A DNA stretch of 64,000 bases from contig NZ_LT607751.1 in NCBI RefSeq assembly GCF_900090305.1, forward strand, positions 4,154,001 to 4,218,000, read 5' to 3'. Position 1 is the stretch's first letter; each line of letters begins with the position of its first letter. The notes beneath the pieces are model-generated. The model saw nothing but the letters and a program-made list of their open reading frames with translations. It was not told the origin of the DNA and ran no database searches. A program made the position numbers and the translations under genes. This DNA is from Micromonospora siamensis (GTDB lineage Bacteria; Actinomycetota; Actinomycetes; Mycobacteriales; Micromonosporaceae). Positions 1-19,477 of this stretch are shown here, piece after piece.

Positions 1-315
1 CCCGACCGAGAAGTCGGCGGCGTGCATCGACCCGCCCCGGCCCCGGTTCGACCCGGTCTCCCGACCGCACAGCTCGGCCATCGTCCGGGCCGGGTCGGCG
101 CCCTTGGCGAGCACGTGGCCGTGCCCGCGGTGGGTGCCGGTGACCAGGTCCGTCGGCCGCAGCGCCGCGCACACCCCGGCGGCGATCCCCTCCTGCCCGA
201 GGTACGGGTGGATGCCGCCGACGATGTGCCCGGAGCGGACCAGCTCGATCGCCCGCTCCTCGAACCGGCGGATCAGCCGGACCGTCCGGTAGAGCCGGAC
301 CGGGTCGTCGGTCAC
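1..315 (-). CDS. Thiamine-dependent dehydrogenase E1 alpha subunit (partial, runs off the left edge)
   Basis: This is the N-terminal 105 residues of an E1 alpha subunit of the pyruvate/branched-chain/acetoin dehydrogenase type, which decarboxylates a 2-oxoacid using thiamine diphosphate. The family signature is clear: THRGHGH at residues 61-67 and GRGGSMH at 92-98, in the region that lines the cofactor pocket. The GTG start (313-315) overlaps the TGA of the DUF3050 gene by four bases, so it is the last visible member of the left operon. The E1 beta gene would be expected further left, outside the window. In a cluster with a hydroxymandelate-synthase-like enzyme, PglB/PglC-like conversion of an aryl 2-oxoacid to an aryl-CoA is possible. 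That substrate is inference; the family is seen. Confidence 0.88.
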
Positions 316-1109
316 CGGTCGCGCCCCTCCTTGACGGCCGCCAGGATGTCGTCCCAGAGCCGGGCCCGGGCGGTGAGCGCCAGGTTGACCGTGTCGGCGC
401 ACTCCTGCCACTTGACGTCGTCGTCGCCGCACAGGTCGGCGAGCATCTGCATGGCCATCGGGGTGTGCTGCTCCCCGTCGACCTCGATGTGCCGCTCCAG
501 GTAGTCGACGAAGGTGTGCAGCCGGCGGCTGCGTTCGTTGACCGCGACGACCTGGGTGAACATGTCGGGGATCAGGTCCTCGCGGCCGAAGGCGAACGCG
601 GCGGCCTGGCAGTGCACCGGGGTCGACTCGATGATCTGCCAGGTGGTGGCGGCGAACCGGGCCGACGGTGCGGGCACGCCGGCCGCGGCCAGCGCCTCGG
701 TGACGCCGGTGCCGGCGCGCAGCAGCTCGATCAGCGCGTCCACGGCGGTGGTGTCGGCGCCGGCCTCCCGCATGCCCCGCACGTAGAGCTCGAAGTGGCT
801 GATGTAGCCCTCGCCGAGCTCGTCGCTCTCCTCCACCATCACGATGTCGTTGATCAGCCGGCGGCTGCCGGTCGGGCCGGTGGGGATCCACGGCACGGTC
901 ACGCAGGTCAGCTGCCGCTGCAACGACTTCAGCAGGGACATGAAGTCCCAGACCGCGAAGACGTGGTGCTCCATGAAGGTGACCAGCGACTCGTGGGTGT
1001 CCAGGTTGGCGTAGAGCGGGTGCTGCACGACCGCTTCGCGGCGGTCGGTCACCGCCTGCTCCAGCCGCTCGATGCCCGGGTGGGTCCTTCCCCAGTCGTA
1101 CCGTGACAT
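312..1109 (-). CDS. DUF3050 domain protein (heme-oxygenase-like fold family)
   Basis: A 265-residue protein recognised by the DUF3050 signature near residues 48-70, including [20 protein letters not shown], followed by a conserved His/Glu-rich body ([17 protein letters not shown]). The family is predicted to be all-helical and related to TenA/heme-oxygenase-like oxygenases, which can bind iron. No reaction is established. The ATG at 1107-1109 is chosen because AGGGAGG sits six bases upstream, inside the end of the dioxygenase gene, with a two-base gap between the genes. Its stop overlaps the start of the E1 alpha gene. Being coupled to two oxygenases and an oxoacid dehydrogenase suggests a biosynthetic oxidation or C-C cleavage step. 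That role is inference. Confidence 0.85.
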
Positions 1110-1111
1110 GT

Positions 1112-2044
1112 TCAGCCTCCCTGCGCGGCGCGGTGGCGCCAGATGACCGGGCAGTATTCGGGGTCCGCGTAGTCCGGCCGCCCGTCGTGGGTGCGGCGGA
1201 CCAACGCGTCGTGGTTGTAGCCGGCGAGGGTGCCGTCGGAGAGCGGGTACTCCCGCCAGGCGTTGTCGCCGTCCTGCAGGTGCAGCGAGATCGCCCGGCG
1301 GGGGCGGCCGCTGACGTTCGCGCCGCTGCCGTGGTAGGTGCGGCAGTGGTGGAAGGACATGTGGCCCTTCGGGATCACCATCGGGACCTTGCGGATCTGC
1401 GCGCCGTTGTGGGCCGCGTTCTCGGCCAGCATCTCCTCCAGCTGGTCGCGGTCGCGGTCGGCGAAGTGCCGCACCACGGTGTCGTCCGCGCCGATCTCGG
1501 ACCACCGGTGCGAGCCGTCGACCATGGTGATGGTGCCCATCTCCTCCCCGCAGTCGTGGAACGGGATGAAGGCGGTGAGCATCTTCTCCGACGACGAGGA
1601 CGCCCAGTAGTGCTTGTCGAAGTGCCAGGGCACGATGTTCGACGGCTCGCCGGAGATCGGCGGTTTCCAGATCAGCGTGGACTGGAAGACCCGGATCTCG
1701 TCGGCCCGGGCCAGCCGGGCGGCGACCGCCCCGATCAGCGGCTTGCGCAGGATCGCGCCGATCGCGTCGTGCTCGTGGTGCACGTAGTCGTTGTGCCGCT
1801 GCACGTCGCCCTTGGACGGGTCCCAGTACGCCAGCTTCGGCGGGCGTACCGGCAGCCGCCGGTCGCGGTCCCCGGCGTAGTAGCGGTCGGTGGCGGCGAC
1901 CAGGGCGTCCACCTCGTCGTCGGTGAGCAGCTTCTTCGACAGGTACCAGCCGTGCTCGGCGTAGTGCCGCACGTCGGTGTCGGAGGGAAGCAGCTCCTGC
2001 TCCGCGGCGGTCAGGGTCGGGGAGAACTCCTCGGTCGTGGTCAT
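1112..2044 (-). CDS. PhyH-family Fe(II)/2-oxoglutarate-type dioxygenase
   Basis: A 310-residue protein of the phytanoyl-CoA dioxygenase family, non-heme iron enzymes that hydroxylate their substrate with O2 and 2-oxoglutarate. The iron-binding HFD is at residues 141-143 ([10 protein letters not shown]). The distal His is near 238 (THYHGSG-like segment, seen as RTYHGSGAN), with a following Arg pair (RPRR, 247-250) for the co-substrate. Length is normal for the family. The ATG at 2042-2044 overlaps the TGA of the upstream HmaS/HPPD-type gene, so translation is coupled. It may hydroxylate a product of that enzyme or a carrier-bound acyl chain. The substrate cannot be read from the sequence. Confidence 0.85.
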
Positions 2045-3129
2045 GCCCCCACCCCCTGCGGGACGGACGCCGCAGCGGCCAACTCCCGTTCCTTGGCCTC
2101 GTAGAGCGCCTTGATGTTGCCGCTGCCGAAGGTGAGCGCCCCGCGCCGCTCGATCAGCTCGAGGAAGAGGGTGCGCCGCACGTGCATCGACTCGGTGAAG
2201 ATCTGCAGCAGCTGACCGCCGTGGTCGGAGTCGACCAGGATGCTCAGGTCCCGCAGCCGTTGCAGCGGCGCGTCGACCTTCCCGACCCGCCGTTCCAGGT
2301 CCTCGTAGTAGGCCGCCGGGGCGCCGCCGGCGAAGCGCACCCCGCGCTGCGCGAGGGCGCCCACGGCGGTGACGATGTCGTCGGTGCGCAGCCCGAGGTG
2401 CTGCACCCCGGCGCCTGCGTGCCAGCGCAGGAAGTCCTCGATCTGGCCGGGCCGGGCGCTGGTGTCCGGCTCCAGCAGCACCAGCGTGACCCGCCCGGAC
2501 GGGCTCTGCACGACCTTGGAATTCATCGCCTGCCCGGCGACCTCGACGTGCTCGGCGAAGATCTCGGCGAAGCCGAAGACCGTCGTGTAGTGCCCCACGG
2601 TCTCGTCGAGCTGCCCGGGCGGCACGCAGACCGCCAGGTGGTCGATCTCGGCCAGCAGCCGGTCGTCGTCGACGGCCGGCAGCATGTCCACCGCGCCGGG
2701 CAGGAACTGCGTGCGGTCGCCGCGCCGCTGCACCAGCCGGTGCAGCACGTCGCCGAAGCCGCCGACCTCCGCGGTCACCACCTCGGCGTCCGCGCAGGTG
2801 AAGGTCCGCGGGGCGCTCACCCCGACCGCGCCGCGTTCCAGCAGCTCCGCGTACGCCCCGGCGACGTCGTCGACCTCCAGCGCCACCACGGCGATGCCGT
2901 CGCCGTGCCGTTGCACGTACGCCGACGCGGGATGCTCGGCGGTCAGCCCGGAGGTGAGCACCATCCGGATGTCGGCCTGGGCCAACAGCAGCGACCGCTG
3001 GTCGGCCAGCCCGGTCTCCGGGCCGCCCTGGCCGCGCAGCCGGAACCCGACCGCCGTGCCGAAGTAGAAGGCCGCCTGCCGGGCATCCCCGACGTACAGC
3101 TCGATATGGTCTATTCCCCTGATTTCCAC
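2041..3129 (-). CDS. 4-hydroxymandelate synthase / 4-hydroxyphenylpyruvate dioxygenase family enzyme
   Basis: A 362-residue two-domain vicinal-oxygen-chelate dioxygenase acting on an arylpyruvate with O2. The three iron ligands are present: His164 (EIDHLAV), His244 (GVQHLGL) and Glu324 (FLELIER). Several segments look more like hydroxymandelate synthase (HmaS) than [15 protein letters not shown], the VLLEPD stretch where HPPDs have an INEP motif, and C-terminal [13 protein letters not shown]. The length is also HmaS-like. The GTG at 3127-3129 is preferred because AAAGGGG lies eight bases upstream; a GTG at 3138 has no spaced ribosome site. It starts a sub-group (HmaS, PhyH, DUF3050, E1 alpha) after a 70-base gap. 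The family is certain; HmaS rather than HPPD activity is likely but unproven. Confidence 0.87.
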
Positions 3130-3199
3130 GTTCTTCACCCCTTTCCCATGTCCCCCGTGCCAGCCGTCCGGGCGTCGCACCGCCCGGTTGGAGCACCGA

Positions 3200-4453
3200 T
3201 CACCTCCCCGGCGCGGTCGCCCGCGTGCCGGCGGTCCGGCGCAGCAGCAGGCTGACGTTCTGGCCGCCGAAGCCGAAGGAGTTGGTGATCGCCAGGTCCG
3301 TCCCGGTGGCCCGGGGTTCCTTGCGGACGTGGTCCGCCGGGCAGTCCGGGTCCGGGTCGTCCAGGTTGTACGTCGGCGGCAGCAGCCCCCGGTCCAGCGC
3401 CAGTGCGGTGGCCGCCGCCTCCAGCACCCCGGACGCGCCGAGCAGGTGGCCGGTGAGCGCCTTGGTGGAGCTGACCGCCACCCCGCCGACGCCGAAGACG
3501 TCGCCCAGGGCGGTGGTCTCGGCGATGTCGCCGAGTTTCGTGCCGGTGCCGTGGGCGTTGACGTAGCCGACGTCGCCGGCCGCGACGCCCCCGCTGGCCA
3601 GCGCCCGCCGCATGCAGGCCGCCGCCCCGGCACCGTCGGGGCGGGGCGCGGTCGGGTGGTACGCGTCGGTGTTCGCCCCGTACCCGGCCACCTCCGCGTA
3701 CGACCCGACGCCCCGGGCGGCGGCGTGTCCGGCGCGTTCCAGCACCAGCAGCGCCGCCCCCTCGGCCAGCACGAAGCCGTTGCGCCGCCGGTCGAACGGG
3801 CGGCTCGCCTCGGTCGGGTCGTCCCAGCCCCGGGCCAGGGCGCGGGCGTTGCCGAAGGTGTCGGCGAAGGTCGGGAAGAGCGGCGCCTCGCTCGCCCCGC
3901 AGACCACCACGTCGGCCTCGCCGGCCCGGATCAGGCGTACTCCGTCGGCGATCGCCTGGGCGCCGGAGGCGCAGGCCGTGCCGACCGAGGAGCTGTAGCC
4001 GCGGATGCCGTGCGCGATGGCGATGCGTGCCGACGGCATGTTCGGCAGGATCCCGGTGAGCAGGTACGGGCTGACCGCGGCCCGGCCCCGCTCGGCCCGG
4101 GCGAGGACCTGCCGTTCCAGGGTGGACATCCCGCCGACCCCGCCGACGATCACCGCGATCCGCTCCGGGTCGACGTCGCGGCCCACCTCGATGCCGGCGT
4201 CGGCGAGCGCCTCGGCGGCGGTGAGCAGGGCCAGCACCACGATCCGGTCCAGCACCTTGGTCTCCGGACCGGACGCGACGCTGCGCGGGTCGAGCTCCGG
4301 CAGCACGCCGGCGACCTCCAGCGACTCCCGAGCCGGGTGGCCTTCCGGCGGCCGGCTCAGCCCGGACCGACCGGTCGTCAGGGCGGTGAAGGTCTCCTGC
4401 ACGCCGTGCCCGGCCGGGGTGCGCAGCCCCATCCCGGTGATGACGGCGGTCAC
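3200..4453 (-). CDS. Beta-ketoacyl-ACP synthase (FabF-like, intact active site)
   Basis: A 417-residue KAS I/II-type condensing enzyme joining an acyl group to a malonyl-carrier unit. All catalytic residues are visible: Cys161 (VGTACASGAQ), His301 (VNAHGTGTKLGD), Lys331 and His336 (KALTGHLLGASG), plus the C-terminal NSFGFGGQN. The GTG start at 4451-4453 overlaps the TGA of the AMP ligase gene. It is more FabF-like than the type II PKS KS-alpha at 12878-14149, so it probably serves a separate carrier-bound chain. Its neighbours (two carrier proteins, another ketosynthase with a changed active site, a small ketosynthase-like protein) suggest a dedicated elongation set. Confidence 0.92.
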   Translation of the reverse strand: MTAVITGMGLRTPAGHGVQETFTALTTGRSGLSRPPEGHPARESLEVAGVLPELDPRSVASGPETKVLDRIVVLALLTAAEALADAGIEVGRDVDPERIAVIVGGVGGMSTLERQVLARAERGRAAVSPYLLTGILPNMPSARIAIAHGIRGYSSSVGTACASGAQAIADGVRLIRAGEADVVVCGASEAPLFPTFADTFGNARALARGWDDPTEASRPFDRRRNGFVLAEGAALLVLERAGHAAARGVGSYAEVAGYGANTDAYHPTAPRPDGAGAAACMRRALASGGVAAGDVGYVNAHGTGTKLGDIAETTALGDVFGVGGVAVSSTKALTGHLLGASGVLEAAATALALDRGLLPPTYNLDDPDPDCPADHVRKEPRATGTDLAITNSFGFGGQNVSLLLRRTAGTRATAPGR

Positions 4454-6066
4454 GACGCGGACCCGGTCAGGTACCGCTCGCGCAGCGCCACCTTGCGGAC
4501 CTTGCCCGTCACCGTGACCGGGATGTCCGCCGCGGCGACCGGCACCACCCGCCGCAGGGTCGCCCCGAGATCGGCGCCGAGGGCCGCGCGTACCTCGTCG
4601 ATGCGGTCCCGGGCCGGGTCCGCACCGGCGCCCAGTTCCAGCAGCACGTCGGTGACGACGGTGTCGCCGTCGCCGACGATGACCACCGTGCAGTCGGTGA
4701 CGTCGGCGCAGGCGGCCAGCACCCGCTCCTCCGACAGCGCGGTGAAGAACCACTTCCCGTCGGCGGTACGCACCGAGTCGACCGCCCGGTCCAGGTGGTG
4801 GTAGCGGCCCTCGTCGTCGGCGTACACCAGGTCACCGGTCAGGTACCAGCCGCGCAGCCGGGACCGCCAGGTGGTCACCGAGTCGTTCCAGTAGCCGCGG
4901 AACAGCGACGGCGAGTCGATGCCCAGCCAGCCCACCTGCCCGGGCGGCAGCTCGTCGCCCTGCTCGTCGAGCACGGCCACCTTCGTGAACCGGTACGGGC
5001 GGCCGACGCAGCGGCCGTACCGGTCGGTGTCCGGGGTGTGCGTGATGTGGAACATCGAGTGCCCCATCTCGCTGGAGCCCAGCCCGTCGATGAAGACCGA
5101 CCCGGGCACCCGGGTCACCCCCTGGCGGGTCACCACGTCCCGCGAGCCGACCGCGACCAGCCGCCGCACGTGCGGCTCGTGGGAGCAGTCGCCGGTGTTG
5201 AACCACAACCGCACCGAGTCCAGGTCGTAGCCGGTGAGGTCGAAGCGGGCCAGCTCCGCCCAGGTCACCGAGAAGCCGAACACCCCGTCGGGTCGCCAGC
5301 GTTGGATGGCGTCGAGGACCCGTTCGCCGCCCTGGTCGGACAGCAGGAACATCTCCGCCCGGTTGCCCAGCGCCTGGTTGACCATCAGCACGGTGGCGGT
5401 GTGCGGGGCGGGCAGCGCGTTGAGGATCCGCCGGGTGCCCTGCGCCTGCGGCATGGACAGCAGGTGCCGGGTGGCGGCGAAGAGGCTCGAGTGGGAGTGC
5501 AGCACGGCCTTCGGCACCCCGGTGGTGCCGGAGGTGTGGGTGATGACGATCGGGTCCTCGGCGTGGTGGCGGTAGTGCGCCGGGGCGGCGGCCGGGTCGC
5601 CGGCGCCGGCCTCGGCGGGCTCGCCGAGCAGCGGCGCGCCCAGCTCGTGCCCGGCCAGCAGCGCGGTGTGCGCGGCGTCGGCGAGCACCCCGGAGGCGCG
5701 CAGCCGGCGGATGTACTCGGCGGCGATCTCCGGGCGCAGCTTGCCGTTCATCAGCGCCGGGATCGCGCCGAGCCGGGTCAGCGCCAGGAAGCTGAGCACC
5801 ATGTCGGCGGCGCCGGTGGCCCACACCGCGATCGGGTCGCGCGGGCGTACCCCACGCTCGTGCAGCCAGGCCGCCCGGGCGGCGACCCGCTGGTCGAGCT
5901 GGCCCAGGGTGAGCGGATGCTCGGCCGGGTACCCGTCGACCGGGGTGTCGAAGGTCAGCCCGGGGCCGTCCGGGTCGGCGCCGTGCGCCAGCACCCGGGC
6001 CAGCACGTTCCCGGCGCCCAGTTCCCCGTCGGCGGCGAGCCTGCCGCGCAGTCCCTTGGTCCTCAT
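4450..6066 (-). CDS. AMP-dependent synthetase/ligase (acid-activating enzyme)
   Basis: A 538-residue adenylate-forming ligase that activates a carboxylic acid as acyl-AMP and transfers it to CoA or a carrier protein. The phosphate-binding P-loop THTSGTTGVPK lies near residues 177-187. GWYLTGDL and a linker follow, and a C-terminal TVTGKVRK carries the usual catalytic Lys. The substrate-pocket segment (GLGSSEMGHSMF) is not diagnostic. The ATG at 6064-6066 overlaps the preceding TGA, and the stop overlaps the ketosynthase start. It is one of two ligases in this operon; the other (8282-9682) is shorter and divergent. They may activate different acids, or one may load a carrier protein. The substrate is unknown. 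Confidence 0.9.
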   Translation of the reverse strand: MRTKGLRGRLAADGELGAGNVLARVLAHGADPDGPGLTFDTPVDGYPAEHPLTLGQLDQRVAARAAWLHERGVRPRDPIAVWATGAADMVLSFLALTRLGAIPALMNGKLRPEIAAEYIRRLRASGVLADAAHTALLAGHELGAPLLGEPAEAGAGDPAAAPAHYRHHAEDPIVITHTSGTTGVPKAVLHSHSSLFAATRHLLSMPQAQGTRRILNALPAPHTATVLMVNQALGNRAEMFLLSDQGGERVLDAIQRWRPDGVFGFSVTWAELARFDLTGYDLDSVRLWFNTGDCSHEPHVRRLVAVGSRDVVTRQGVTRVPGSVFIDGLGSSEMGHSMFHITHTPDTDRYGRCVGRPYRFTKVAVLDEQGDELPPGQVGWLGIDSPSLFRGYWNDSVTTWRSRLRGWYLTGDLVYADDEGRYHHLDRAVDSVRTADGKWFFTALSEERVLAACADVTDCTVVIVGDGDTVVTDVLLELGAGADPARDRIDEVRAALGADLGATLRRVVPVAAADIPVTVTGKVRKVALRERYLTGSAS

Positions 6067-6575
6067 TGGCCAGTTCCTCCCCCCAGCAGCACCGCGACCG
6101 CCGTCCCGGGCGCGTCGGGTGCCTGTTCGATCAGGACCAGCAACGCCTCGTCGGCGTCGCCGTCGTACAGCAGCAGGTCGACCTCGGCGGTCCCGTCAGC
6201 CTGCGGGTCGCCGGTCGGGGCGAGGCAGACCACCGGGCCGCGCAGCCCGTGCCGGGCGGCCACCAGCCCGGCCACGCTGTTCGGCACCGACTGGAAGAAG
6301 AACAGCGGTCCGACCCGGGCGCCGCCGGCCACGGCGGTCCGCACTTGCTCGGCGCTGGGCCGGTCGCCGCGGGCGCTGACCAGCACCACCGCCGTCCGTT
6401 CGCCGGGCGCGGTGCCCTCCGGGCGGCGGCTCAGGCAGCGCTGCGCCACGGCGGCCACCAGCGGGTGGAACGGCGAGTGCACGAAGCCGGGCAGCGGCGG
6501 CGGGGCCGCGTCGCCGGGCTCCGGCCACGCCGCCCGGGCCAGCACCACCGGCCCGTCGACCTTCGGGGCGGTCAT
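6063..6575 (-). CDS. Small ketosynthase-like protein (beta-ketoacyl synthase N-terminal-type domain)
   Basis: A 170-residue protein with the segment FFFQSVPNSVAGLVAARHGL followed by GPVVCLAP. This resembles the short beta-ketoacyl-synthase N-terminal-type domain (Ketoacyl-synt_2 like) found beside ketosynthases and chain-length factors in aryl-polyene-type systems. It has no His-containing C-terminal half, so it cannot be a complete condensing enzyme. It sits between a divergent ketosynthase and an AMP ligase and is coupled to both by four-base overlaps, which points to a partner or scaffold subunit. The ATG at 6573-6575 is the start consistent with the coupling. Family placement is moderate; the function is not known. 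Confidence 0.7.
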   Translation of the reverse strand: MTAPKVDGPVVLARAAWPEPGDAAPPPLPGFVHSPFHPLVAAVAQRCLSRRPEGTAPGERTAVVLVSARGDRPSAEQVRTAVAGGARVGPLFFFQSVPNSVAGLVAARHGLRGPVVCLAPTGDPQADGTAEVDLLLYDGDADEALLVLIEQAPDAPGTAVAVLLGGGTGQ

Positions 6576-7675
6576 GCCGCACCGACCAGCAGCGCGGTGT
6601 TGGCGCCGCCGAACGCCGCGTTGAGGCTCAACGCGTACGGGCTGCCGGCCGGGCGGGGCGCGTCGACGATCACGTCCAGCGGGCAGGCCGGGTCGGGGCC
6701 GAGCCAGCCGGCGTTGACCGGCAGCTTGCCGTGCCGCAGCGCCTGCACGGTCACCACCAGCTCCAGCAGTCCGGAGGCCTCCAGCGCGTGCCCGTGCACC
6801 GCCTTGGTGGAGCTGACCGGAACCCGCCCGGCGTGCTCGCCGAGCGCCGCCCGCAGCGCCGCCGCCTCGGCGGCGTCGCTGAGCCCGGTGCCGGTGGCGT
6901 TGGCGTTGACGTAGCCCACGTCGGCCGGCTCCAGGCCGGCGCGGCGCAGCGCCGCGGTCACCGCCCGGGCCAGGCCCCGCCCGGCCGGGTCGGGCTGGCA
7001 CGGGTGGTACGCGTCCCCGGCCCGCCCCCAGCCGCGTACGGTGGCCACCGGTTCGCCGCCGCGCCCGTCGGCCGCCTCCAGCACCACGGCGGCCACCCCG
7101 TCGCCGAGCAGCAGGCCGGTGCGGCCGGCGCTGAACGGTCGGGCGGCGCCGTCGGTGGCCAGCGCCCGGCCGGCGTCGAAGAGCGCGTACTGGTCCGGCT
7201 CGACCAGGTAGCCGGCGGCCACCACGACCCGGGTGACGTCGCCGCGGCCGATCATCGTGGCGGCGTCGGCGACCGCGGTGCTGGCCGAGACGCAGGCGCT
7301 GGTGTAGACCCGGGTGCGCCCGCCCAGCCCGCACCGGTCCGCCAGCCACCCGCCCAGGGCGGGCACCTCGGGCCCGCCGTCGGTGACCGGTCCGCCGTGG
7401 GTGGCCAGCAGCAGCGCCGACTCGCGCCGCCCGGCCCGGTCGAGGCCGGCGGCCCGGCAGGCGACGTCGACGGCGTCGGCCAGCTCCTCGGCGAGCGGTC
7501 CCACGTCACCGGCGGTGGCCGCCACGCCGACCCGCCGGCCGGTGACGTCGAAGCGGCGCACCGGCGCGAACGCCGGCACGCCGGCCAGCGCCCCGGCCAG
7601 CTGCGCCTCGGCGCCCCGCCCCAGGGCGCTGACCGCGTGTACGCCGGTGACGGCCACCGGCGTCCGCTCAACCAT
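6572..7675 (-). CDS. Divergent ketosynthase with Cys-Asn-His active site
   Basis: A 367-residue thiolase-fold condensing enzyme. The nucleophile region is kept (TSACVSAST, Cys128), and so are Lys291 and the second His (KAVHGHALEAS, His296). The first catalytic His of the usual NAHGTGT motif is replaced: the protein reads NANATGTG, with Asn259 at that position. In KAS I/II enzymes this His helps decarboxylate malonyl-carrier, so the protein may be a chain-length-factor-like partner, an acyltransferase, or a non-decarboxylating condensing enzyme. The ATG at 7673-7675 overlaps the end of the carrier-protein gene by eight bases. The family is secure; the catalytic consequence is inference. Confidence 0.88.
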   Translation of the reverse strand: MVERTPVAVTGVHAVSALGRGAEAQLAGALAGVPAFAPVRRFDVTGRRVGVAATAGDVGPLAEELADAVDVACRAAGLDRAGRRESALLLATHGGPVTDGGPEVPALGGWLADRCGLGGRTRVYTSACVSASTAVADAATMIGRGDVTRVVVAAGYLVEPDQYALFDAGRALATDGAARPFSAGRTGLLLGDGVAAVVLEAADGRGGEPVATVRGWGRAGDAYHPCQPDPAGRGLARAVTAALRRAGLEPADVGYVNANATGTGLSDAAEAAALRAALGEHAGRVPVSSTKAVHGHALEASGLLELVVTVQALRHGKLPVNAGWLGPDPACPLDVIVDAPRPAGSPYALSLNAAFGGANTALLVGAA

Positions 7676-7913
7676 CCGCGGCGGCGGTGAGCGAGGCGTG
7701 GAAGACCGCCAGGGCGTCGTCCACGGTGCGCACCGAGGCGAGCTGCTCGTCGGTGAGGTCGAGCCGCCGGTCGTAGCGCTGCTCGACCAGGTGGACCAGC
7801 CAGGCCAGCTCCATCGAGCCGACCCGCTCGGACACCTGCTCCACGGGTGTGGCGTTCAGTTCGGCGAGCATCGTCACCAGGTCAGCTCGCCCCAGGTCGG
7901 GCCGACCGGTCAT
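7668..7913 (-). CDS. Acyl carrier protein-like protein, atypical site
   Basis: An 81-residue acidic helical protein with the phosphopantetheine-carrier pattern. The likely attachment Ser is Ser33 in VGSMELAWLV, followed by the helix II/III pattern LTDEQLASVRTVDDAL. The usual Asp before the Ser is Gly here, so modification is likely but less certain than in the neighbouring carrier. ATG 7911-7913 forms a TGATG junction with the upstream carrier gene; a GTG at 7914-7916 is an alternative start. It probably holds the acyl chain for the adjacent ketosynthases. Two carrier genes in tandem suggest one for the loaded acid and one for the extender, which is inference. Confidence 0.82.
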   Translation of the reverse strand: MTGRPDLGRADLVTMLAELNATPVEQVSERVGSMELAWLVHLVEQRYDRRLDLTDEQLASVRTVDDALAVFHASLTAAADG

Positions 7914-8179
7914 CACGCGTCGGCGCGTCGCGCCCCGGCGACCCGGTCGGCGACCATCGTGGTGAACTCGCCGACCGTCATCAGGGCCAGCTTCTCCGAC
8001 TCGTCGTCGGCGAACTTCAGGCCGTAGCGGTCCTCCACCCGGACGGAGAGGTCCGCCAGGGCCAGCGACTCCAGGTCCACGCCGGCCGGGCCGAGAGTGG
8101 TGTCGTCGTCGATCTCCTCCACGTCGTAGTTCATGTCGGCGAGCTGCTCGATGACGAAGGTGCGGACCTCGTCTCGCAT
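7913..8179 (-). CDS. Acyl carrier protein
   Basis: An 88-residue acyl carrier protein with the expected four-helix pattern. The phosphopantetheine Ser is Ser38 in VDLESLALADL. The ATG at 8177-8179 is chosen over the in-frame ATG at 8189-8191 because GAGG lies six bases upstream of it. The protein is strongly acidic (EEIDDDTTL), as usual. It lies directly downstream of an AMP ligase and directly upstream of the second carrier gene, overlapping it at the stop codon. The ligase-carrier pairing suggests direct loading of an activated acid, as in aryl-carrier systems. Confidence 0.9.
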   Translation of the reverse strand: MRDEVRTFVIEQLADMNYDVEEIDDDTTLGPAGVDLESLALADLSVRVEDRYGLKFADDESEKLALMTVGEFTTMVADRVAGARRADA

Positions 8180-8281: not shown

Positions 8282-9682
8282 TCATGAGCCGGCGGCGCGC
8301 AGCGCGGTGGCGGAGCGGACCAGCTTGCCGGTGGTGGTACGGGGCAGCTGGTCGAGCAGGCGCAGGTTGCGCGGGCGCTTGTAGCCGGCCAGCCGTTCGG
8401 CGAGCAGCGCGTCCAGCGTGTCCTCGGTCAGCGGGCCGTCGGGCTGGACGTAGGCGGTGATCCCGTCGTCCCAGACCACCACGGCGGAGGCGACGCCGGG
8501 CAGCCCGGTGAGGGTGGACTCGACCTCGGTGAGGTCCACCTTCATCCCGCCGACCGAGACCTGCGAGTCGAGCCGGCCCTTGATGGTGACCAGCCCGGTG
8601 TCCGGGTCGACGACGCCGGCGTCGCGGGTGTGCAGCCAGCCGTCGGACCACCGGGTCGGGTCGGCGAGGCCGACGTACGGGTTGGCGGGGCAGCTGACCC
8701 ACAGCTCACCGGTGGACGACTCTCGTACCTCGATGCCGGGGGCGGGGGCGATGGCCGGGCGGTGCCGCCCGTACAGGTCGGTGCCGATGACGCCGACCTC
8801 GGTCATCCCGTACATGTTGCCCAGCGGGACGCCGTACCGGTCGGTGAAGGCGCGGGCCACCGCGGCGGGCACCAGCTCACCACCGGTGGTCATCCGCTTG
8901 AGCTGCGGCAGCGGCCCGGGCGGGGTGGTGGAGGCGAGCAGTCCGATGTGGAAGGGCACGCCGAGCACGGTGGCCGGGGTGTCCCGGTCGGCCACTGCGG
9001 CGAGGATGGCGTCGCCGCTGAGCCGTTGCGGCGGCACCAGCTCCACCCGGGCGTGCAGCCCGTAGAGCAGCCCGCCGACCAGGCCGAGCACGTGCACCAT
9101 CGACGGCAGCAGGATGATCCGTTCGCCGGGCAGCGCGACCCCGTCGATGTGGGTGTAGCGGCGTACCTCGGCGGCGAGGTCGGCGGCGGTGCGACCGATC
9201 ACCTTGGACGGTCCGGTGGAGCCGGAGCTGAGCTGGACGACCGCGTGTCCGCTGCCGGCCGGCCGGCCGGAGTAGGCGTGCACGCCGGCGGTCACGTCGT
9301 GGAAGATCCGCAAGCCCCCGCCGCCGGTGCGGACCGGCGCCACCACCACCTGCGGGGTGAGCCGTTCCAGCGCCCGGTCGACCTCGTGGTCGGTGAGCCG
9401 GTGGTCGAGCAGGATCGCCTGGGCGCCGCTGCGCCAGGTGGCCAGCAGGTGCACCACGTACGCCAGCGAGGGGGGCAGCCGCAGCGCGACGGCGCCGCCG
9501 CGGCGCAGCCCGGCCTCGGCGAGCCGGGTCCGCGCGTCGGTCACCAGCCGGCGCAGGGTGGCCCGGTCGACGGGGTCGGGCAGCCGGAGGCAGACGTCAC
9601 CCGGGTCGCCGTCGAGCAGCAGCTCGTCGACCCATTCCGGGTCCGTTCCGAGGGCGTCTTCCGCCACAGGTTGCCTGGTCAC
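8282..9682 (-). CDS. AMP-dependent acyl ligase (short form, first gene of left operon)
   Basis: A 466-residue adenylate-forming ligase with P-loop LSSGSTGPSK, the motif YGMTEVGVIG, the hinge-region segment GWLHTRDAG and C-terminal TTTGKLVR with the catalytic Lys. It is shorter than the ligase at 4450-6066 and only distantly similar to it. The shorter N-terminal half resembles carrier-protein or CoA ligases for aromatic or short acids. The start is GTG at 9680-9682. A 100-base gap separates it from the carrier gene, then tight coupling follows. As the first gene of the block it is likely transcribed from the 9683-9943 spacer. The substrate is not predictable from the sequence. Confidence 0.88.
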   Translation of the reverse strand: MTRQPVAEDALGTDPEWVDELLLDGDPGDVCLRLPDPVDRATLRRLVTDARTRLAEAGLRRGGAVALRLPPSLAYVVHLLATWRSGAQAILLDHRLTDHEVDRALERLTPQVVVAPVRTGGGGLRIFHDVTAGVHAYSGRPAGSGHAVVQLSSGSTGPSKVIGRTAADLAAEVRRYTHIDGVALPGERIILLPSMVHVLGLVGGLLYGLHARVELVPPQRLSGDAILAAVADRDTPATVLGVPFHIGLLASTTPPGPLPQLKRMTTGGELVPAAVARAFTDRYGVPLGNMYGMTEVGVIGTDLYGRHRPAIAPAPGIEVRESSTGELWVSCPANPYVGLADPTRWSDGWLHTRDAGVVDPDTGLVTIKGRLDSQVSVGGMKVDLTEVESTLTGLPGVASAVVVWDDGITAYVQPDGPLTEDTLDALLAERLAGYKRPRNLRLLDQLPRTTTGKLVRSATALRAAGS

Positions 9683-9943: not shown

Positions 9944-10264
9944 TCAGTGGGCGCCGCCCAGGTTGAGCACCACCACACCGGCGATCACCAGCGCGACGCC
10001 GACCACCTTCGGGATGCTCAGCGGCTCGCCGAGGAAGACCGCGCCGATCGCCACGATCGCCGCCGTCCCCAGCCCGGACCACATCGCGTAGGCGACCCCG
10101 ACGGGGATGTCGCGCACCGCCAGGGCGAGCAGCCCGAAGGCGACCGCGTAGGACAGCAGCATGCCGAGGGTCGGCCAGAGCCGGGTGAAGCCCTCGGTGG
10201 CCTTGAGCAGGCTGGTCCCGAAGACCTCGGACGCGATCGCGAGCAGCAGGTAGACGTACGCCAT
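9944..10264 (-). CDS. Small multidrug resistance (SMR) family efflux protein
   Basis: A 106-residue, four-helix membrane protein of the EmrE/Qac family, exchanging protons for cationic compounds or guanidinium. The membrane-embedded Glu13 (ASEVFGTSLLKA) aligns with EmrE Glu14, and YAMWSGLGT in helix 3 is the conserved family segment. The ATG at 10262-10264 is preceded by GGGAGG. It sits between the two biosynthetic blocks, next to a phosphotransferase, so a self-resistance or product-export role is possible. SMR genes are also common housekeeping genes and may simply export guanidinium. A search upstream did not show a convincing guanidine riboswitch. Confidence 0.93.
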   Translation of the reverse strand: MAYVYLLLAIASEVFGTSLLKATEGFTRLWPTLGMLLSYAVAFGLLALAVRDIPVGVAYAMWSGLGTAAIVAIGAVFLGEPLSIPKVVGVALVIAGVVVLNLGGAH

Positions 10265-10570: not shown

Positions 10571-11563
10571 TCAGGTCAGGTAGCCGCGCAGGTAGCCGAA
10601 GGCGGCGGTGGTGTCCTCGCTCTCCCGGTGCGAGCGCCGGAAGTCCGCCACGAAGCCGGCAATGTCGGCGACGTCCCAACGCAGCCGGTACAGGGCGAGC
10701 GCGTCCGGGTCCACCGGGCGGCCCGTGGACGCGGTCCAGCCCACCAGCGCGTCCGTCCCGGTGTCACCGGCCAGGAACCACAGGTCCCGCTCGGGCGGGC
10801 CGAGCCGCACGGTGTCCCAGTCGACCAGCCGCAGCCCGGCACCGGTCCACATCAGGTTGCCCGGGTGCGGCTCACCGTGGGTGACCACCCAGTCGGAGCC
10901 GGTGGCGGCGACCCGGGCGACCAGCCGGTCGACCTCGGCGAGCAGCCCGGCGACGTGGTCGGCCCGGTCGGCGAGCAGCCGGCGGGCCGGCTCGGCGAAC
11001 GGCCCGCCGGTCCACGGCCGGTCGAGGTCGCGCAGCGCGGCGAGCAGCCCGTCGCGTCCGGGCACGTCCAGGTCGGCGCGCTGCACAGTGCCGGCCACCG
11101 CCGAGGTGGCGGCGTGCAGCCGGGCCAGCAGGTCCAGCACCTCGGGCACGTCCCGCGGCCGGTGTGGCCCGAACCGCCCGGCGGCGCCGTCGACGAGCGG
11201 GAACACGGAGACCGCGTAGCGGGCGTCCAGCCGGCGCACCGGCTCCCCGGTCGTGGCGGGCACCGGGGCGACCACGAACTCCAAACCCGCCTCGCGCAGC
11301 GCCCCGGCGGTCGCCAGCGCGCGGGCCAGCCCGGCGTGCACGACCTCCGCCGGCTCGGGATCCACCGTCAGGTCGTCGACGGTGACGAACCAGGACCGGC
11401 CGTCGCCGTCGGTCGCCGTCCAGTGGTACGCCCCGAACCCCACCGGCCGGTACGTCAGTGAGTGCGGCTGCCAGCCCCAGCCGGTGGCCAGCGCGGCGGT
11501 GAGGTCGGCGTCGTCGAGTCCCTCGGGTCGGTCCAGCACGGTCGCCGATCCTGCCACCGCCAC
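10571..11563 (-). CDS. APH-type phosphotransferase (aminoglycoside/choline-kinase fold)
   Basis: A 330-residue kinase-like protein. The catalytic loop THGEPHPGNLMW (with Glu in place of the more common Asp of HGD) and the metal-binding LVDWDTV are both visible in the C-terminal half, followed by RDLWFL. It resembles spectinomycin/hygromycin-type phosphotransferases but the substrate cannot be assigned. The GTG start is at 11561-11563. It lies 73 bases after the KS-beta gene in the same direction, so it may be co-transcribed with the PKS and give self-protection or modify a product. That is inference from position. Confidence 0.85.
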   Translation of the reverse strand: MAVAGSATVLDRPEGLDDADLTAALATGWGWQPHSLTYRPVGFGAYHWTATDGDGRSWFVTVDDLTVDPEPAEVVHAGLARALATAGALREAGLEFVVAPVPATTGEPVRRLDARYAVSVFPLVDGAAGRFGPHRPRDVPEVLDLLARLHAATSAVAGTVQRADLDVPGRDGLLAALRDLDRPWTGGPFAEPARRLLADRADHVAGLLAEVDRLVARVAATGSDWVVTHGEPHPGNLMWTGAGLRLVDWDTVRLGPPERDLWFLAGDTGTDALVGWTASTGRPVDPDALALYRLRWDVADIAGFVADFRRSHRESEDTTAAFGYLRGYLT

Positions 11564-11588: not shown

Positions 11589-11652
11589 CCGCCGGCCGGC
11601 GGCGGTCACGGCCACGCCGGCCGGCGGCGGTCACGCCTACGCCGGCCGGCGG
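11589..11652. repeat. 25-bp tandem repeat, two full copies and a partial third
   Basis: A 25-base unit beginning CCGGCCGGCGGCGGTCACG is repeated at 11589 and 11614, with a partial third copy from 11639. It spans the end of the KS-beta gene and the spacer before the phosphotransferase. Each unit contains the self-complementary CCGGCCGG, so it can form hairpins and may act as a transcription or mRNA-stability element. It may equally be slippage-derived. Confidence 0.7.
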
Positions 11653-12881
11653 GGTTGCGGTTCCGCGCCGCGGACCACCAGGGCGGTGTTGAAGCCGTCG
11701 AAGCCGCGGGCGCCGACCAGCGCGACGCGGTGCCGGGGCGCCCGGTGCTCGCGCAGGAAGTCCAGCTCGCAACCCTGCGCCGGGTCGTCCGGCCCGGCCG
11801 AGGCGGGCAGCGTGTCGTGGGCGAAGGCGAGCAGCGCGGTGGCCACATCCAGCGCCGAGCCGCCCTGGTGGGCCCGGCCGGTCAACGGTTTCTGGGTGCT
11901 CACCGGCGGCGGCCGGTCCCCGAAGACCGTCCGCAGGGCGTCGGCCTCGGCCCGGTCGTGCGCCGGCACACCCAGCGCGTCGGGGAACACCACGTCGACC
12001 TCCCCCGGGTCGACCCCGGCCCGCTCCAGCGCCTGACGCATCGCCCGGGCGTAGTGGACGGCCTCGGCCCCGTCGGGTCGGGTCGGCGCGGCGTCGTGGG
12101 TGGCCGCCCACCCGGTCACCTCGCCGTAGATCCGCGCCCCCCGGGACACGGCGTGGCCGAGTTCCTCCACGACGAAGACCGCGCCACCCTCGGCGGGCAC
12201 GTAGCCCTGGGCGTCGCGATCGAACGGCCGGTACGCCCGCCGTGGGTCCGACACGTCGCTGAGCAGCCCGGAGCGCAGCTGGCAGGCCAGCGCGTACGGG
12301 CTCAGCGGGCACTCGGTCGCGCCGGCGATCACCACCGGGGTACCCCGGCGGATCGTCCTGGCGGCGTGCGCCAGGCTGTCCAGCCCACCCGCCGACTCGG
12401 CGACCAGCACCCCACAGGGGCCCTTGAACTGGTGGTGGATGGAGAGCTGCCCGACGCTCGCGGCGTAGAACCAGGCGATCGACTGGTACGCCCCCACCGT
12501 GCGCGACGTGCCACCCCAGAGCCGTTGCAGCTCCCGCTGGCCGAACAGGTTCCCCCCGGACGAGCTGGCCAGGGTGACCGCGTAACCGTACGGGTCGGGG
12601 GCCCGCTCCGGCAGCCCGGCGTCGGCCAACGCCAGCCGGGTGGCGGCGAACCCCAGGTGGGTCCAGCGGTCGGTCTGCACCAGCCGCCGCTGGTCGGCCC
12701 AGGCGGTGGCCTCGAAGCCGGGCACCTCCCCGCCGACCCGCGTCGGGTAGCCCGCCGGGTCGAACAGGGTGATCGGCCCGGTCCGGCGCTCGCCCGCGGT
12801 CACCGTCGCCCAGTGCGCGTCGGCGCCGATCCCGCTCGGCGCCACCACCCCGATGCCGGTGACCACCGCCCGGGCGCTCAT
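11637..12881 (-). CDS. Type II PKS chain-length factor (KS-beta)
   Basis: A 414-residue ketosynthase-like partner of KS-alpha that helps set polyketide chain length. At the position of the catalytic Cys the sequence reads [13 protein letters not shown]. The Glu before and AGGLD after match chain-length factors, but Ser163 stands where Gln is typical. No catalytic HGT motif is kept. [14 protein letters not shown] and the C-terminal [10 protein letters not shown] are family features. The ATG at 12879-12881 overlaps the KS-alpha stop by four bases, as is usual for these heterodimer pairs. The stop (TAG at 11637-11639) falls in a tandem repeat. Confidence 0.93.
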
Positions 12882-14145
12882 CCGGCCACCCCGGCGAGCC
12901 GGCGGAACAGCATCGCCGACTGGAAACCGCCGAAGCCGCTGCCCACCGAGAGCGCCACGTCCACCGGCACCTCCCGCGCCTCGTTCGGCACGTAGTCCAG
13001 GTCGCACTCCGGGTCACGGGTCGCCCAGTTGGCCGTCGGCGGCACCACCCCGAACTCGATGGCCAGGGCGCAGGCGGCCATCTCGATCGAGCCGATGGCG
13101 CCCAGCGAATGCCCCACCATCGACTTGATCGAGCTGATCGGCACCCGGTACGCGGCCTCGCCGAGGGCGCGTTTGAACGCGGCGGTCTCGTGCCGGTCGT
13201 TCTGCCGGGTGCCCGAGCCGTGCGCGCTGATGTAGGAGACCTGCTCGGGGGCGAGCCGGGCCTGTCTCATCGCCGCGCTGATCGCCAGCCCCATCTCCAC
13301 CCCGTCGGGACGCAGGCCGGTCATGTGGAAGCCGTTGCTGCGGCTGGCGTACCCGGCGACCTCGCAGTAGACGTGCGCGCCCCGGCGGCGGGCGTGCCCG
13401 TACTCCTCCAGCACCAGCACCGCGGCGCCCTCGGCGAGGACGAAGCCGTGCCGGTCGGCGTCGAACGGCCGGGAGGCGTGCGCCGGGTCGTCGTTGTCCG
13501 GGCTGGTCGCCCCGATCGCGTCGAACGAGGCGACGGTGACCGGCGAGATCGGCGAGTCGGCCGCCCCGGCGAGCACCACGTCGGCCTCACCGTCGGCGAT
13601 CAGCTGGTGGGCGTAGCCGATGGCGTCGATGCCGGAGGTGCAGCCGGTGGAGACCACCTGCGCCGGGCCGTACAGGCCGTGCCGGCAGGCCACGTCCGCG
13701 GCCAGGCTGCTGGGCACCAGGGCCTGGTAGAGGTACGGGCCGCCGAGGCGGTGGTCGACCAGCCAGTGCCGACCGGAGTCGCTGACCCGCACGTACTCCT
13801 GCTCCAGGGCCATGGTGCCGCCGACGGCGGTGCCGAGCACCACCCCGGCCCGCTCCCGCTGCGCGTCGGTGAGCTCCAGCCCGCTGTCCGCGACCGCCTC
13901 CGCCGCGCAGGCCAGCGCGAACTGCACGTACCGGTCGGCGCGCTGCCGCTCGGCCACGGTGATCCCCGCCGCGTCGGGGTCGAAGTCGCACTCGGCGGCG
14001 ATCTGGGAGCGGAACGGCGACGGGTCGAAGAAGCTGATCCGCCGGGTCGCCGTCCGCCCCTCGGTGATGGTCTTCCAGAACCGGTCCCGGGTGACGCCGC
14101 CCGGGGCGACCACCCCGACCCCGGTCACCACCGTGCGGCGCCCGC

Positions 14146-14149
<4 letters not shown>
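12878..14149 (-). CDS. Type II PKS ketosynthase (KS-alpha)
   Basis: A 423-residue condensing subunit of an aromatic type II polyketide synthase. Catalytic residues are Cys170 ([14 protein letters not shown]), His310 ([15 protein letters not shown]), Lys342 and His347 ([17 protein letters not shown]). The C-terminal [11 protein letters not shown] is also typical. It forms the minimal PKS with the KS-beta gene it overlaps and the carrier domain of the ACP-cyclase fusion at 14531-15241. The GTG start at 14147-14149 overlaps the cupin stop. The overall set (cupin, KS-alpha, KS-beta, ACP, aromatase, TcmI cyclase) resembles spore-pigment and pentangular-polyphenol clusters. Confidence 0.96.
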
Positions 14150-16674
<2,525 letters not shown>

Positions 16675-16692
16675 CGCCGCGCCCCCGCCGTC

Positions 16693-17151
16693 TCAGGCCG
16701 GGTCCAGGGCGACCAGCGGCTGGTCGTACTCGACCGGCTTGCCGTCCTCGACCAGCAGCTCGACCACCCGACCGGCCCGGTCGGCGGTCACCTCGTTGAG
16801 CAGTTTCATCGCCTCGACGATCCCCACCACCTGCCCGGGCCGGACCTGGTCACCGACGGCCACGAACGGCGCCGCGCCCGGCTCCGGGGACCGGTAGAAG
16901 GTGCCGACCATCGGCGCGCGGACCAGCAGGGCGGCGGCCGGCTGCTCGGCGGCGGCGACCGGCTGGCCGACCGGCGCCTCCCGGGGCGTCGGCACCGGCT
17001 GGGCGGGACCGTGCCACTCCACCTCCAGCACGGTGTCGCCGCTGCGCAGCCGTACCCGCCGGACCGGGCCGGCGAGCTCGTCGACCAACTGCCGGGCGTG
17101 CCGGCGCAGCTCGGTGAGCACGCCGTCGTCGGACGTCGGCCCGGCGTTCAC
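16693..17151 (-). CDS. accB: Acetyl-CoA carboxylase, biotin carboxyl carrier protein
   Basis: A 152-residue biotin carrier protein. The biotin-accepting Lys116 is in [10 protein letters not shown] near the C-terminus. A Pro/Ala-rich linker (about residues 50-78) separates the N-terminal part from the biotinyl domain, and [13 protein letters not shown] begins that domain as in BCCPs. The GTG at 17149-17151 overlaps the accDA stop by four bases. It moves the carboxyl group from AccC to the carboxyltransferase. Its place in the cluster shows a dedicated malonyl-CoA supply. Confidence 0.94.
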
Positions 17152-18929: not shown

Positions 18930-19477
18930 GGCCGCCACCCGGTGGCCGAGGCTCCCCCGCGTTCGGCCCGGTACGCCACCACGGCCCCGGCGACACCTGC
19001 GGCCCGCTCCTGCGCGGGACGGAACCCCCTCGCGGCGATCGGCCAACGGTCCATCGAACATCTCCCCCTCCGGCGCGCGTCCGGCTCCGGCGGTGACGGC
19101 CGCAGCCCGGGACAACTCGTCGCGAGCATGCGGCGAGGACCGTCAACCGGGCGTCACCACAGGCCGCCTTCGGGCCCTGCACAGTCGTGACGATGCGTTG
19201 ACGCAAGCTGTGCGCGAGATAAGCGTGAGCTGCACTCGCGTCACCCCCACTTACCTCTTATCCGCAGTTCAGAGCCGTTCCAGGAAAGGCCTGCGGGCAG
19301 TCGCCATGGCGACCATCTGTTGACTGAGTGTAACTGTGATTGATAATCTTCAGCACGGCCAGCCCGGCGCACCGGGGCGGGTGCGACGCTCCGGCCGACG
19401 GCCCCGACAGCGGTGTCACGTGCCTAGCCGGGTCTTCTGGTGAATCCGGACTCCGCTTCCGCTGCAGGGGGTGCCAC
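18930..19477. promoter_or_regulatory. Divergent control region of the PKS cluster
   Basis: A 548-base gene-free region between the acc/PKS operon (minus) and the SARP gene (plus). Within it, TGACG occurs at 19188-19192 and again at 19199-19203, an 11-base pitch like the heptamer repeats bound by SARP regulators. The central part (about 19195-19350) is distinctly AT-richer than its surroundings. A plus-strand promoter is listed separately. A minus-strand promoter for the acc/PKS operon must also lie here but no clear -35/-10 pair was found for it. Confidence 0.6.
19320..19347 (+). promoter_or_regulatory. Sigma-70-type promoter for the SARP gene
   Basis: TTGACT at 19320-19325 and GATAAT at 19342-19347 are separated by 16 bases and point towards the SARP gene. 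Both hexamers are close to the vegetative consensus, which is rare in DNA this GC-rich. Transcription would start near 19354 and give a leader of about 120 bases before the GTG at 19478. Confidence 0.7.

What the first reader, a model, noticed from the sequence alone, without database searches (positions are those of the whole stretch)
1..3129. Possible new route to an aryl starter unit: HmaS-like + PhyH + DUF3050 + E1 alpha
The order of an arylpyruvate dioxygenase with hydroxymandelate-synthase-like residues, a PhyH oxygenase, a DUF3050 protein and an oxoacid dehydrogenase E1 subunit fits a path arylpyruvate, mandelate, arylglyoxylate, aryl-CoA. The E1 step would parallel PglB/PglC of phenylglycine biosynthesis. 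No such set linked to ketosynthases and a type II PKS is known to me. Seen: the families and the coupled operon. Known: HmaS and PglB/C chemistry. Inferred: the route and its role in priming.
Basis: partly seen in the sequence, partly recalled or inferred. Interest (0 to 1): 0.85.

Follow-up and report, generated by a model that had tools for sequence, protein, structure and literature searches.

The report
Tyrosine-derived aryl-unit gene cluster
A set of genes shared by many soil and marine actinobacteria appears to turn a tyrosine precursor into a hydroxymandelate and hydroxyphenylglycine type building block, and adds two enzymes of unknown role whose chemistry has not been described in this setting.

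Summary
The genes are real. The operon continues left of the window: E1 beta overlaps E1 alpha, followed by an ATP-grasp-like protein. No E2 lies nearby. The dioxygenase is of hydroxymandelate synthase (HmaS) type by tree and residues; the genome has a separate HPPD.

The route differs from the proposal. A mandelate-oxidase-like (Hmo) gene and an HpgT-like aminotransferase gene lie about 20 kb left. On the E1 beta contig, Hmo-like genes lie within 30 kb in 16 of 18 related genomes tested, HpgT-like genes in 18 of 18. So the backbone looks like the 4-hydroxyphenylglycine pathway, and PhyH is not needed to oxidise mandelate. A Streptomyces plasmid has HmaS-Hmo-PhyH-HpgT-exporter-prephenate dehydrogenase without annotated E1, suggesting that PhyH acts on a free member of that series.

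Conserved partners resemble the avenalumate/p-coumarate type II PKS set in gene content; the aromatic CLF was seen beside the core only in Micromonospora and Salinispora. DUF3050 is dispensable. The E1 step (aryl 2-oxo acid to activated aroyl or acyloin unit) stays inferred. No product is known.

The parts
1..315 (-). E1 alpha of a 2-oxoacid dehydrogenase (N-terminal part; the gene continues left to genome 4153347; 322 aa in all; ThDP motif GDG..NN present)
   Evidence: PF00676 E 5.5e-62; ThDP motif; E1 beta follows outside the window with 1-nt overlap
312..1109 (-). DUF3050, haem-oxygenase-like fold protein; dispensable in the cluster family
   Evidence: PF11251 E 1.9e-97, PF14518 E 2.9e-9; PDB 9vwb 199 bits; 66 of 80 loci
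1112..2044 (-). PhyH-family oxygenase; His-x-Asp and a distal His invariant in an 11-row alignment (their role as iron ligands is recalled)
   Evidence: PF05721, alignment A1, 66% identical to PhyH of the S. angustmyceticus HmaS-Hmo-PhyH-HpgT operon
2041..3138 (-). Hydroxymandelate-synthase-type dioxygenase (HmaS)
   Evidence: Tree, residues, PDB 2r5v best
3200..4453 (-). KS1, FabF-like ketosynthase with Cys-His-His present
   Evidence: 69 of 80 loci, and on the same contig, farther off, in Saccharothrix and Labedaea genomes
4450..6066 (-). Adenylate-forming enzyme closest to AvaA6- and Tri17-type enzymes
   Evidence: NF058622 504 bits, below cut-off 975; PDB 8ztz 417, Tri17 8tf7/9bq0 328, 9xb8 280 bits, next ligase 94 bits
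6063..6575 (-). AmcG-like partial ketosynthase-fold protein
   Evidence: PF13723; NF058659 43 bits, below cut-off 80
6572..7657 (-). AmcF-like ketosynthase-fold protein; Cys kept, HGTGT read as NATGTG
   Evidence: PF02801, PF00109; NF058662 152 bits, below cut-off 325; sequence
7668..7916 (-). cp60, short putative carrier protein (GSMEL motif; no Pfam hit)
   Evidence: 70 of 80 loci
7913..8179 (-). Acyl carrier protein
   Evidence: PF00550, 23.1 bits, cut-off 20.8
8282..9667 (-). AL62, acyl-adenylating ligase
   Evidence: PF00501, PF13193; 69 of 80 loci

Best explanation
The four genes are part of a widespread actinobacterial cluster that builds an aryl unit from 4-hydroxyphenylpyruvate. HmaS makes 4-hydroxymandelate; the linked Hmo-like enzyme oxidises it to 4-hydroxyphenylglyoxylate; the linked HpgT-like enzyme can transaminate that to 4-hydroxyphenylglycine. 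PhyH oxidises a free member of this series (which one is unknown). E1 alpha/beta, which has no dedicated E2, takes the 2-oxo acid branch. It most likely decarboxylates the arylglyoxylate (or a PhyH-modified form) to a thiamine-bound aroyl unit, which is passed on to the AL62/ACP/KS1/AmcF-AmcG machinery (an avenalumate-like type II set), either as an aroyl thioester or by carboligation. In Micromonospora an ATP-grasp ligase probably closes an amide. Shown by sequence: the families, linkage, conservation and HmaS type. Inferred: every substrate, the role of PhyH and DUF3050, the E1 step and the product.
For: HmaS-side grouping and residues; a separate canonical HPPD in the genome. Hmo-like and HpgT-like genes about 20 kb left in the own genome, and in related genomes on the E1 beta contig: Hmo-like 16 of 18, HpgT-like 18 of 18. 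Core conservation over 80 named loci: PhyH 80 (the query), HmaS 80, E1a 78, E1b 76, AvaA6-like 74, cp60 70, KS1 69, AL62 69. S. angustmyceticus operon HmaS-Hmo-PhyH-HpgT-DMT-prephenate dehydrogenase. Gene content resembling ava/cma: acyl-ACP ligase, two ACPs, KS, CLF, A6 (passages of PMC10777205). An E1 gene pair with no E2 named in its operon has a precedent in PglB/C (passages of PMC7089894). Glutathione-synthetase-like fold of g050, from a weak model.
Against: No product, assay or substrate. The cluster E1 alpha is nearest to PDH-type E1 (NCBIfam 272 bits, cut-off 394; best PDB chain human PDH E1 alpha, 181 bits), which says nothing of arylglyoxylate use. No KR or DH was recognised in the core, so a highly reducing PKS is not established. 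Streptosporangiaceae genomes of L135, L137 and L138 lack a close KS1, so HmaS-PhyH-E1 is not strictly tied to it. Two of 18 genomes (L135, L138) have no linked Hmo-like gene. L051 shows HmaS-PhyH-DUF3050 with no E1, KS1 or AvaA6-like hit in its 20 kb. The S. angustmyceticus operon has no annotated E1.
Confidence: 0.5

Rival explanations
1. One reading: PhyH (or DUF3050) oxidises mandelate to arylglyoxylate, and E1 with a borrowed E2 makes aryl-CoA that primes the neighbouring aromatic KSalpha/CLF type II PKS.
For: Gene order and coupling; E1 beta present; KSalpha/CLF next to the core in the window.
Against: A linked Hmo-like oxidase in 16 of 18 genomes; DUF3050 not found in 14 of 80 loci (one of these, L133, is a 3.5 kb contig); CLF seen in 24 of 80 loci, all Micromonospora or Salinispora (flank at most 10 kb); the one Kribbella genome searched has no second KS on the cluster contig at E <= 1e-60.
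Confidence: 0.12
2. E1 alpha/beta acts as a Pgl-type enzyme: it turns 4-hydroxyphenylpyruvate into 4-hydroxyphenylacetyl-CoA for priming, while HmaS/Hmo/HpgT separately supply 4-hydroxyphenylglycine for an amide partner.
For: PglB/C precedent; both activities would use the same precursor; ATP-grasp-like or condensation/PCP proteins occur in the family.
Against: PglB/C sequences could not be compared here; no test of substrate.
Confidence: 0.2
3. E1 alpha/beta is a stand-alone carboligase that joins an aroyl or acyl anion to a carrier-bound acceptor (acyloin chemistry).
For: No E2 match in 100 loci; of 80 loci E1a is in 78, cp60 in 70, AL62 in 69.
Against: No direct sign of the reaction; a borrowed E2 is equally possible (four in the genome).
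Confidence: 0.15
4. The cluster makes an N-N or N-O compound from the arylglycine amine: the AvaA6/Tri17-like enzyme and DUF3050 are the key enzymes.
For: g057 aligns nearly full length with Tri17 and 8ztz; DUF3050 protein MgoB lies in the mgo operon; a different cluster has DUF3050 next to an AvaA6-like enzyme, with a carrier protein (L054).
Against: g057 is below the AvaA6 cut-off (504 vs 975 bits); no nitrite-forming gene pair was recognised, but I annotated only one member each of 19 of at least 28 shared non-core families in 25 loci and did not search for such genes; DUF3050 is dispensable.
Confidence: 0.15

Closest known systems
4-Hydroxyphenylglycine pathway of glycopeptide antibiotics (HmaS, Hmo, HpgT; recalled, HmaS and Hmo also named in passages of PMC7089894)
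   Same: HmaS by tree and residues; Hmo-like FMN oxidase and HpgT-like aminotransferase linked in most genomes tested (16 and 18 of 18)
   Different: PhyH and E1 alpha/beta are added, and ketosynthases, ligases and small carrier proteins accompany them
Phenylglycine pathway pglABCDE of pristinamycin
   Same: E1 alpha/beta gene pair proposed to act on an aromatic 2-oxo acid, no E2 named in the operon; an aminotransferase
   Different: HmaS and Hmo-like genes are present here; PglA is called a dioxygenase or a dehydrogenase in the passages seen, and its sequence was not compared
ava/cma clusters (avenalumic and p-coumaric acid; highly reducing type II PKS)
   Same: acyl ligase, two small carrier proteins, KS, CLF-like protein and an A6-type adenylate enzyme in one cluster (gene content from passages of PMC10777205)
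S. angustmyceticus plasmid operon NZ_CP104318 (HmaS-Hmo-PhyH-HpgT-DMT-prephenate dehydrogenase)
   Same: PhyH 66%, Hmo 48%, HpgT 53% identical to those of the window's genome
   Different: no E1, DUF3050, ligase, ACP or KS annotated nearby; product unknown

Membership tests
Hydroxymandelate synthase (HmaS) | Groups with HmaS, not HPPD | tested here: met
   33-row tree: 7 HPPD rows and 26 others, with 2r5v, parted by a 100/100 branch of length 1.22. Rows were called HPPD by source name, by score or residues, or by a homogentisate dioxygenase neighbour. 7yvv, 3zgj and several plasmid rows on the HmaS side carry HPPD names from their sources. The program flagged long branches (3zgj, L161, L167)
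Hydroxymandelate synthase (HmaS) | HPPD Pro/Asn/Phe active-site letters replaced (which positions matter is recalled, from no call) | tested here: met
   Window VTLVLLEPD and GNIKALY, 2r5v VTLTLIEPD and SNIKALY, HPPDs of the type VKFPINEPA and GNFKALF. At the Pro position the window has Val where most HmaS-side rows have Thr
Hydroxymandelate synthase (HmaS) | Makes 4-hydroxymandelate from 4-hydroxyphenylpyruvate | not testable with these tools
   needs an assay
Hpg pathway | HmaS, Hmo and HpgT together | tested here: met
   own genome, 20 and 21 kb from E1 beta; Hmo-like 16 of 18 and HpgT-like 18 of 18 related genomes. Assigned by family, not by comparison with characterised Hmo or HpgT
Pyruvate/branched-chain dehydrogenase complex | E1 alpha, E1 beta and E2 in one operon | tested here: not met
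   E1 alpha and E1 beta present; no E2 in the operon; four E2 genes elsewhere
AvaA6 diazotase equivalog | Score above NF058622 cut-off 975 bits | tested here: not met
   504.3 bits
ava/cma-type highly reducing type II PKS | Acyl ligase, two ACPs, KS, CLF and reductive genes | tested here: inconclusive
   ligase, ACP, carrier-like protein, KS and CLF-like proteins present; no KR or DH recognised in the core
Pgl phenylglycine pathway | PglA-E homologues | not tested

The most novel reading that the evidence does not exclude
An E2-less E1 alpha/beta uses the arylglyoxylate made by HmaS and Hmo as an aroyl donor, loading a carrier protein or a growing chain of an avenalumate-like type II PKS. That would be a tyrosine-derived route to an aroyl (starter or acyloin) unit, conserved in at least nine named actinobacterial genera and with no described product.
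Probability: 0.28. Interest if true: 0.8.

Novelty: new variant of a known kind. Interest (0 to 1): 0.55.

Why it matters
If right, many Micromonospora, Salinispora, Kribbella and Saccharothrix genomes carry a conserved cluster that joins arylglycine chemistry to a thiamine-dependent acyl-transfer step and a type II PKS set. It gives two defined enzyme questions (the substrate of this PhyH group; what an E1 pair does without E2) and a genome-mining handle for an unassigned metabolite family.

Tried and rejected
HPPD/homogentisate reading: rejected by tree and residues; the genome keeps a separate HPPD. Against this, the NCBIfam 4HPPD model calls the window protein HPPD, and public annotation calls its relatives hppD.

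Normal PDH operon: rejected. The nearest full set (E2, E1 beta, E1 alpha) lies 35-38 kb left of the window start in L007; its E1 proteins are 36-38% identical to the cluster's.

An early note said that Saccharothrix-type clusters have no KS. One search corrected this: a 59% KS1 lies on the same contig, 16-35 kb from E1 beta in L119, L129 and L131.

Dynaplanin (PMC9239090; outline with abstract, and section 8) was read as a possible match and dropped: different genes. PMC8154892 had no passage on DUF3050.

The PhyH structure prediction failed (mean pLDDT 43) and was not used. The g050 model is weak (mean pLDDT 54); its fold match is used only as a hint.

A phylum-wide PhyH search at E <= 1e-30 found 3 of 396 genomes: the own one, one of the same genus and one 42% relative.

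Searches for print: DUF3050, hydroxymandelate synthase + type II + polyketide, HmaS with Micromonospora and related terms, diazotase terms, conserved-cluster terms, highly reducing type II PKS starters, PDB codes, PglA/phytanoyl, hydroxymandelate + phytanoyl-CoA dioxygenase (no paper). In the titles and abstract starts listed I saw no description of this cluster; some lists were capped and the library holds open-licence papers only. Passages were seen of PMC3298696, PMC4520260, PMC7089894, PMC10685826, PMC10777205 and PMC11705231; no paper was read whole.
Full report
What is there. The window is part of a 6.25 Mb genome in one contig (window = 4154001-4218000). The closest named relative in the loci fetched is Micromonospora mirobrigensis (cluster proteins 90-100% identical, one APH fragment 77%). 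All genes of the finding lie on the minus strand. From AL62 (9667) down to the ATP-grasp-like gene left of the window they form one run, with gaps of -4 to +102 nt: AL62 ligase, ACP61, carrier-like cp60, AmcF-like, AmcG-like, AvaA6-like enzyme, KS1, HmaS, PhyH, DUF3050, E1 alpha, E1 beta, ATP-grasp-like protein. E1 beta has PF02779 and PF02780. No E2 follows.

The dioxygenase. In a 33-row tree the window protein sits in a clade of 15 proteins of the same cluster family (99/97). That clade lies inside a 26-row set with the solved chains 2r5v, 7yvv and 3zgj, parted from seven HPPD rows by a 100/100 branch. The program warned that 3zgj and other rows have long branches. That 2r5v is HmaS is recalled (its depositors' name is PCZA361.1); 7yvv and 3zgj are deposited under HPPD names. 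The letters at the HPPD Pro/Asn/Phe positions are of the 2r5v type in the window, with Val in place of Thr at the first. The genome has a second, canonical HPPD at 214950 (436 vs 343 bits to the 4HPPD model).

The arylglyoxylate step. Some related loci carry an FMN alpha-hydroxyacid oxidase and a MocR-type aminotransferase. The own genome has both, adjacent, at 4132505-4133518 and 4131158-4132438, 20 and 21 kb from E1 beta. They lie beside an alpha/beta hydrolase, a P450 and a GDSL hydrolase. I tested 18 of the 80 named loci, chosen to span genera. E1 beta is found in 18 of 18 genomes, a HpgT-like gene (51-81% identical to the own one) on its contig in 18 of 18, and an Hmo-like gene (49-75%) in 16 of 18, at distances of 1.7-30 kb. 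In the other two (L135, L138) the best Hmo-like genes are 40 and 47% identical and lie on other contigs. This is the gene set of 4-hydroxyphenylglycine biosynthesis, so a mandelate oxidase is already at hand.

PhyH. A Streptomyces angustmyceticus plasmid carries HmaS, Hmo-like, PhyH (66% identical to the window's), HpgT-like, a DMT exporter and prephenate dehydrogenase, with no E1, DUF3050, carrier or KS annotated in the 37 kb shown (this collection's gene table is incomplete by its own statement). PhyH therefore probably acts on a free member of the HmaS-Hmo-HpgT series, and prephenate dehydrogenase points to 4-hydroxyphenylpyruvate as the feed. Which compound PhyH oxidises is not shown.

Conservation. 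A scan of the 84,980-species collection with a PhyH alignment found 238 relatives, of which the best 80 were kept. Counts over these 80 (tblastn at 38% identity or more; some contigs short): PhyH 80 (the query, so by construction), HmaS 80, E1a 78, E1b 76, AvaA6-like 74, AmcG 70, cp60 70, KS1 69, AL62 69, DUF3050 66, AmcF 65, ACP61 64, ATP-grasp 62, CLF 24, KSalpha 5. Named genera are Micromonospora, Salinispora, Kribbella, Labedaea, Saccharothrix, Actinophytocola, Longispora, Dactylosporangium and Catellatospora, one record named Streptomyces, and unnamed Streptosporangiaceae. In a phylum sample PhyH is rare (3 of 396 genomes). DUF3050 alone is commoner (78 of 250 same-family genomes), and in 9 of 20 stretches fetched around it HmaS and PhyH are absent. 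One of the other 11, L051, shows HmaS-PhyH-DUF3050 without E1, KS1 or AvaA6-like hits in its 20 kb.

Which PKS. The CLF seen beside the core occurs only in Micromonospora and Salinispora loci (24 of 80, flank at most 10 kb), and the one Kribbella genome searched has no second KS on the cluster contig, so the aromatic type II PKS looks like a local neighbour. The conserved partners (acyl ligase, two small carrier proteins, KS1, AmcF/AmcG, AvaA6-like enzyme) recall the ava and cma clusters as tabulated in PMC10777205 (passages). Three Streptosporangiaceae genomes lack a close KS1 (best 43-45%), so the HmaS-PhyH-E1 set is not strictly tied to it.

The E1 pair. E1 alpha keeps the thiamine motif. 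The pair is 36-38% identical to the genome's own E1 pair that lies next to an E2. That E2 finds no match in 100 related loci (L043-L142), while the own E1 proteins do match there. The genome's four E2 genes lie elsewhere. PglB/C of pristinamycin is the nearest described use of such a pair on an aromatic 2-oxo acid that I saw (passages of PMC7089894; PMC10685826).

Other proteins. g057 (4450-6066) aligns nearly full length with 8ztz (417 bits) and with Tri17 (8tf7/9bq0, 328 bits; identified as Tri17 in PMC11705231), far above the next ligases (94 bits), yet below the AvaA6 cut-off. DUF3050 is haem-oxygenase-like (passages of PMC4520260), is found in the mgo operon, where its loss only lowers mangotoxin (passages of PMC3298696), and in one unrelated cluster stands next to an AvaA6-like ligase, followed by an amine oxidase and a carrier protein (L054). 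These are leads to N-oxidation or N-N chemistry, not evidence of it here.

Verdict. The aryl-unit idea is strengthened by the linked Hmo-like and HpgT-like genes. The specific route (PhyH or DUF3050 making arylglyoxylate, E1 making aryl-CoA for the aromatic PKS) is revised. The E1 step and the product remain open.

Noticed in passing
window 11637-18938 (-): Aromatic type II PKS block: CLF, KSalpha (TGCTSG), cupin, an ACP fused to a polyketide cyclase in one protein (g068), biotin carboxylase, a BCCP-like protein (by motif only) and a fused AccD-AccA carboxyltransferase.
   Followed up: partly
window 4450-6066 (-): Adenylate-forming enzyme close to the N-N bond enzyme Tri17 and to the AvaA6 model, but below the AvaA6 cut-off.
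   Followed up: partly
window 9944-10264 and 10571-11539 (-): SMR-type efflux protein and an APH(9)-like kinase (236 bits, cut-off 675) between the two PKS blocks.
   Followed up: no
window 6572-7657 (-): AmcF-like KS-fold protein keeps the Cys but reads NATGTG in place of HGTGT.
   Followed up: no
L009 11024-12376 (-), left of the window: 450-aa protein, weak ATP-grasp match, glutathione-synthetase-like fold in a low-confidence model; up to three copies in Kribbella loci.
   Followed up: partly
L054 4495-9900 (-): Different small cluster: DUF3050, AvaA6-like ligase, flavin amine oxidase, carrier protein, AL62-like ligase.
   Followed up: partly
L159 15723-22369: S. angustmyceticus plasmid operon HmaS-Hmo-PhyH-HpgT-DMT exporter-prephenate dehydrogenase, perhaps for a free modified arylglycine.
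   Followed up: partly
L157 and L158 (Burkholderiaceae plasmids): PhyH relatives (35%) beside two octopine/nopaline dehydrogenase family genes and a tyrosinase family gene.
   Followed up: no
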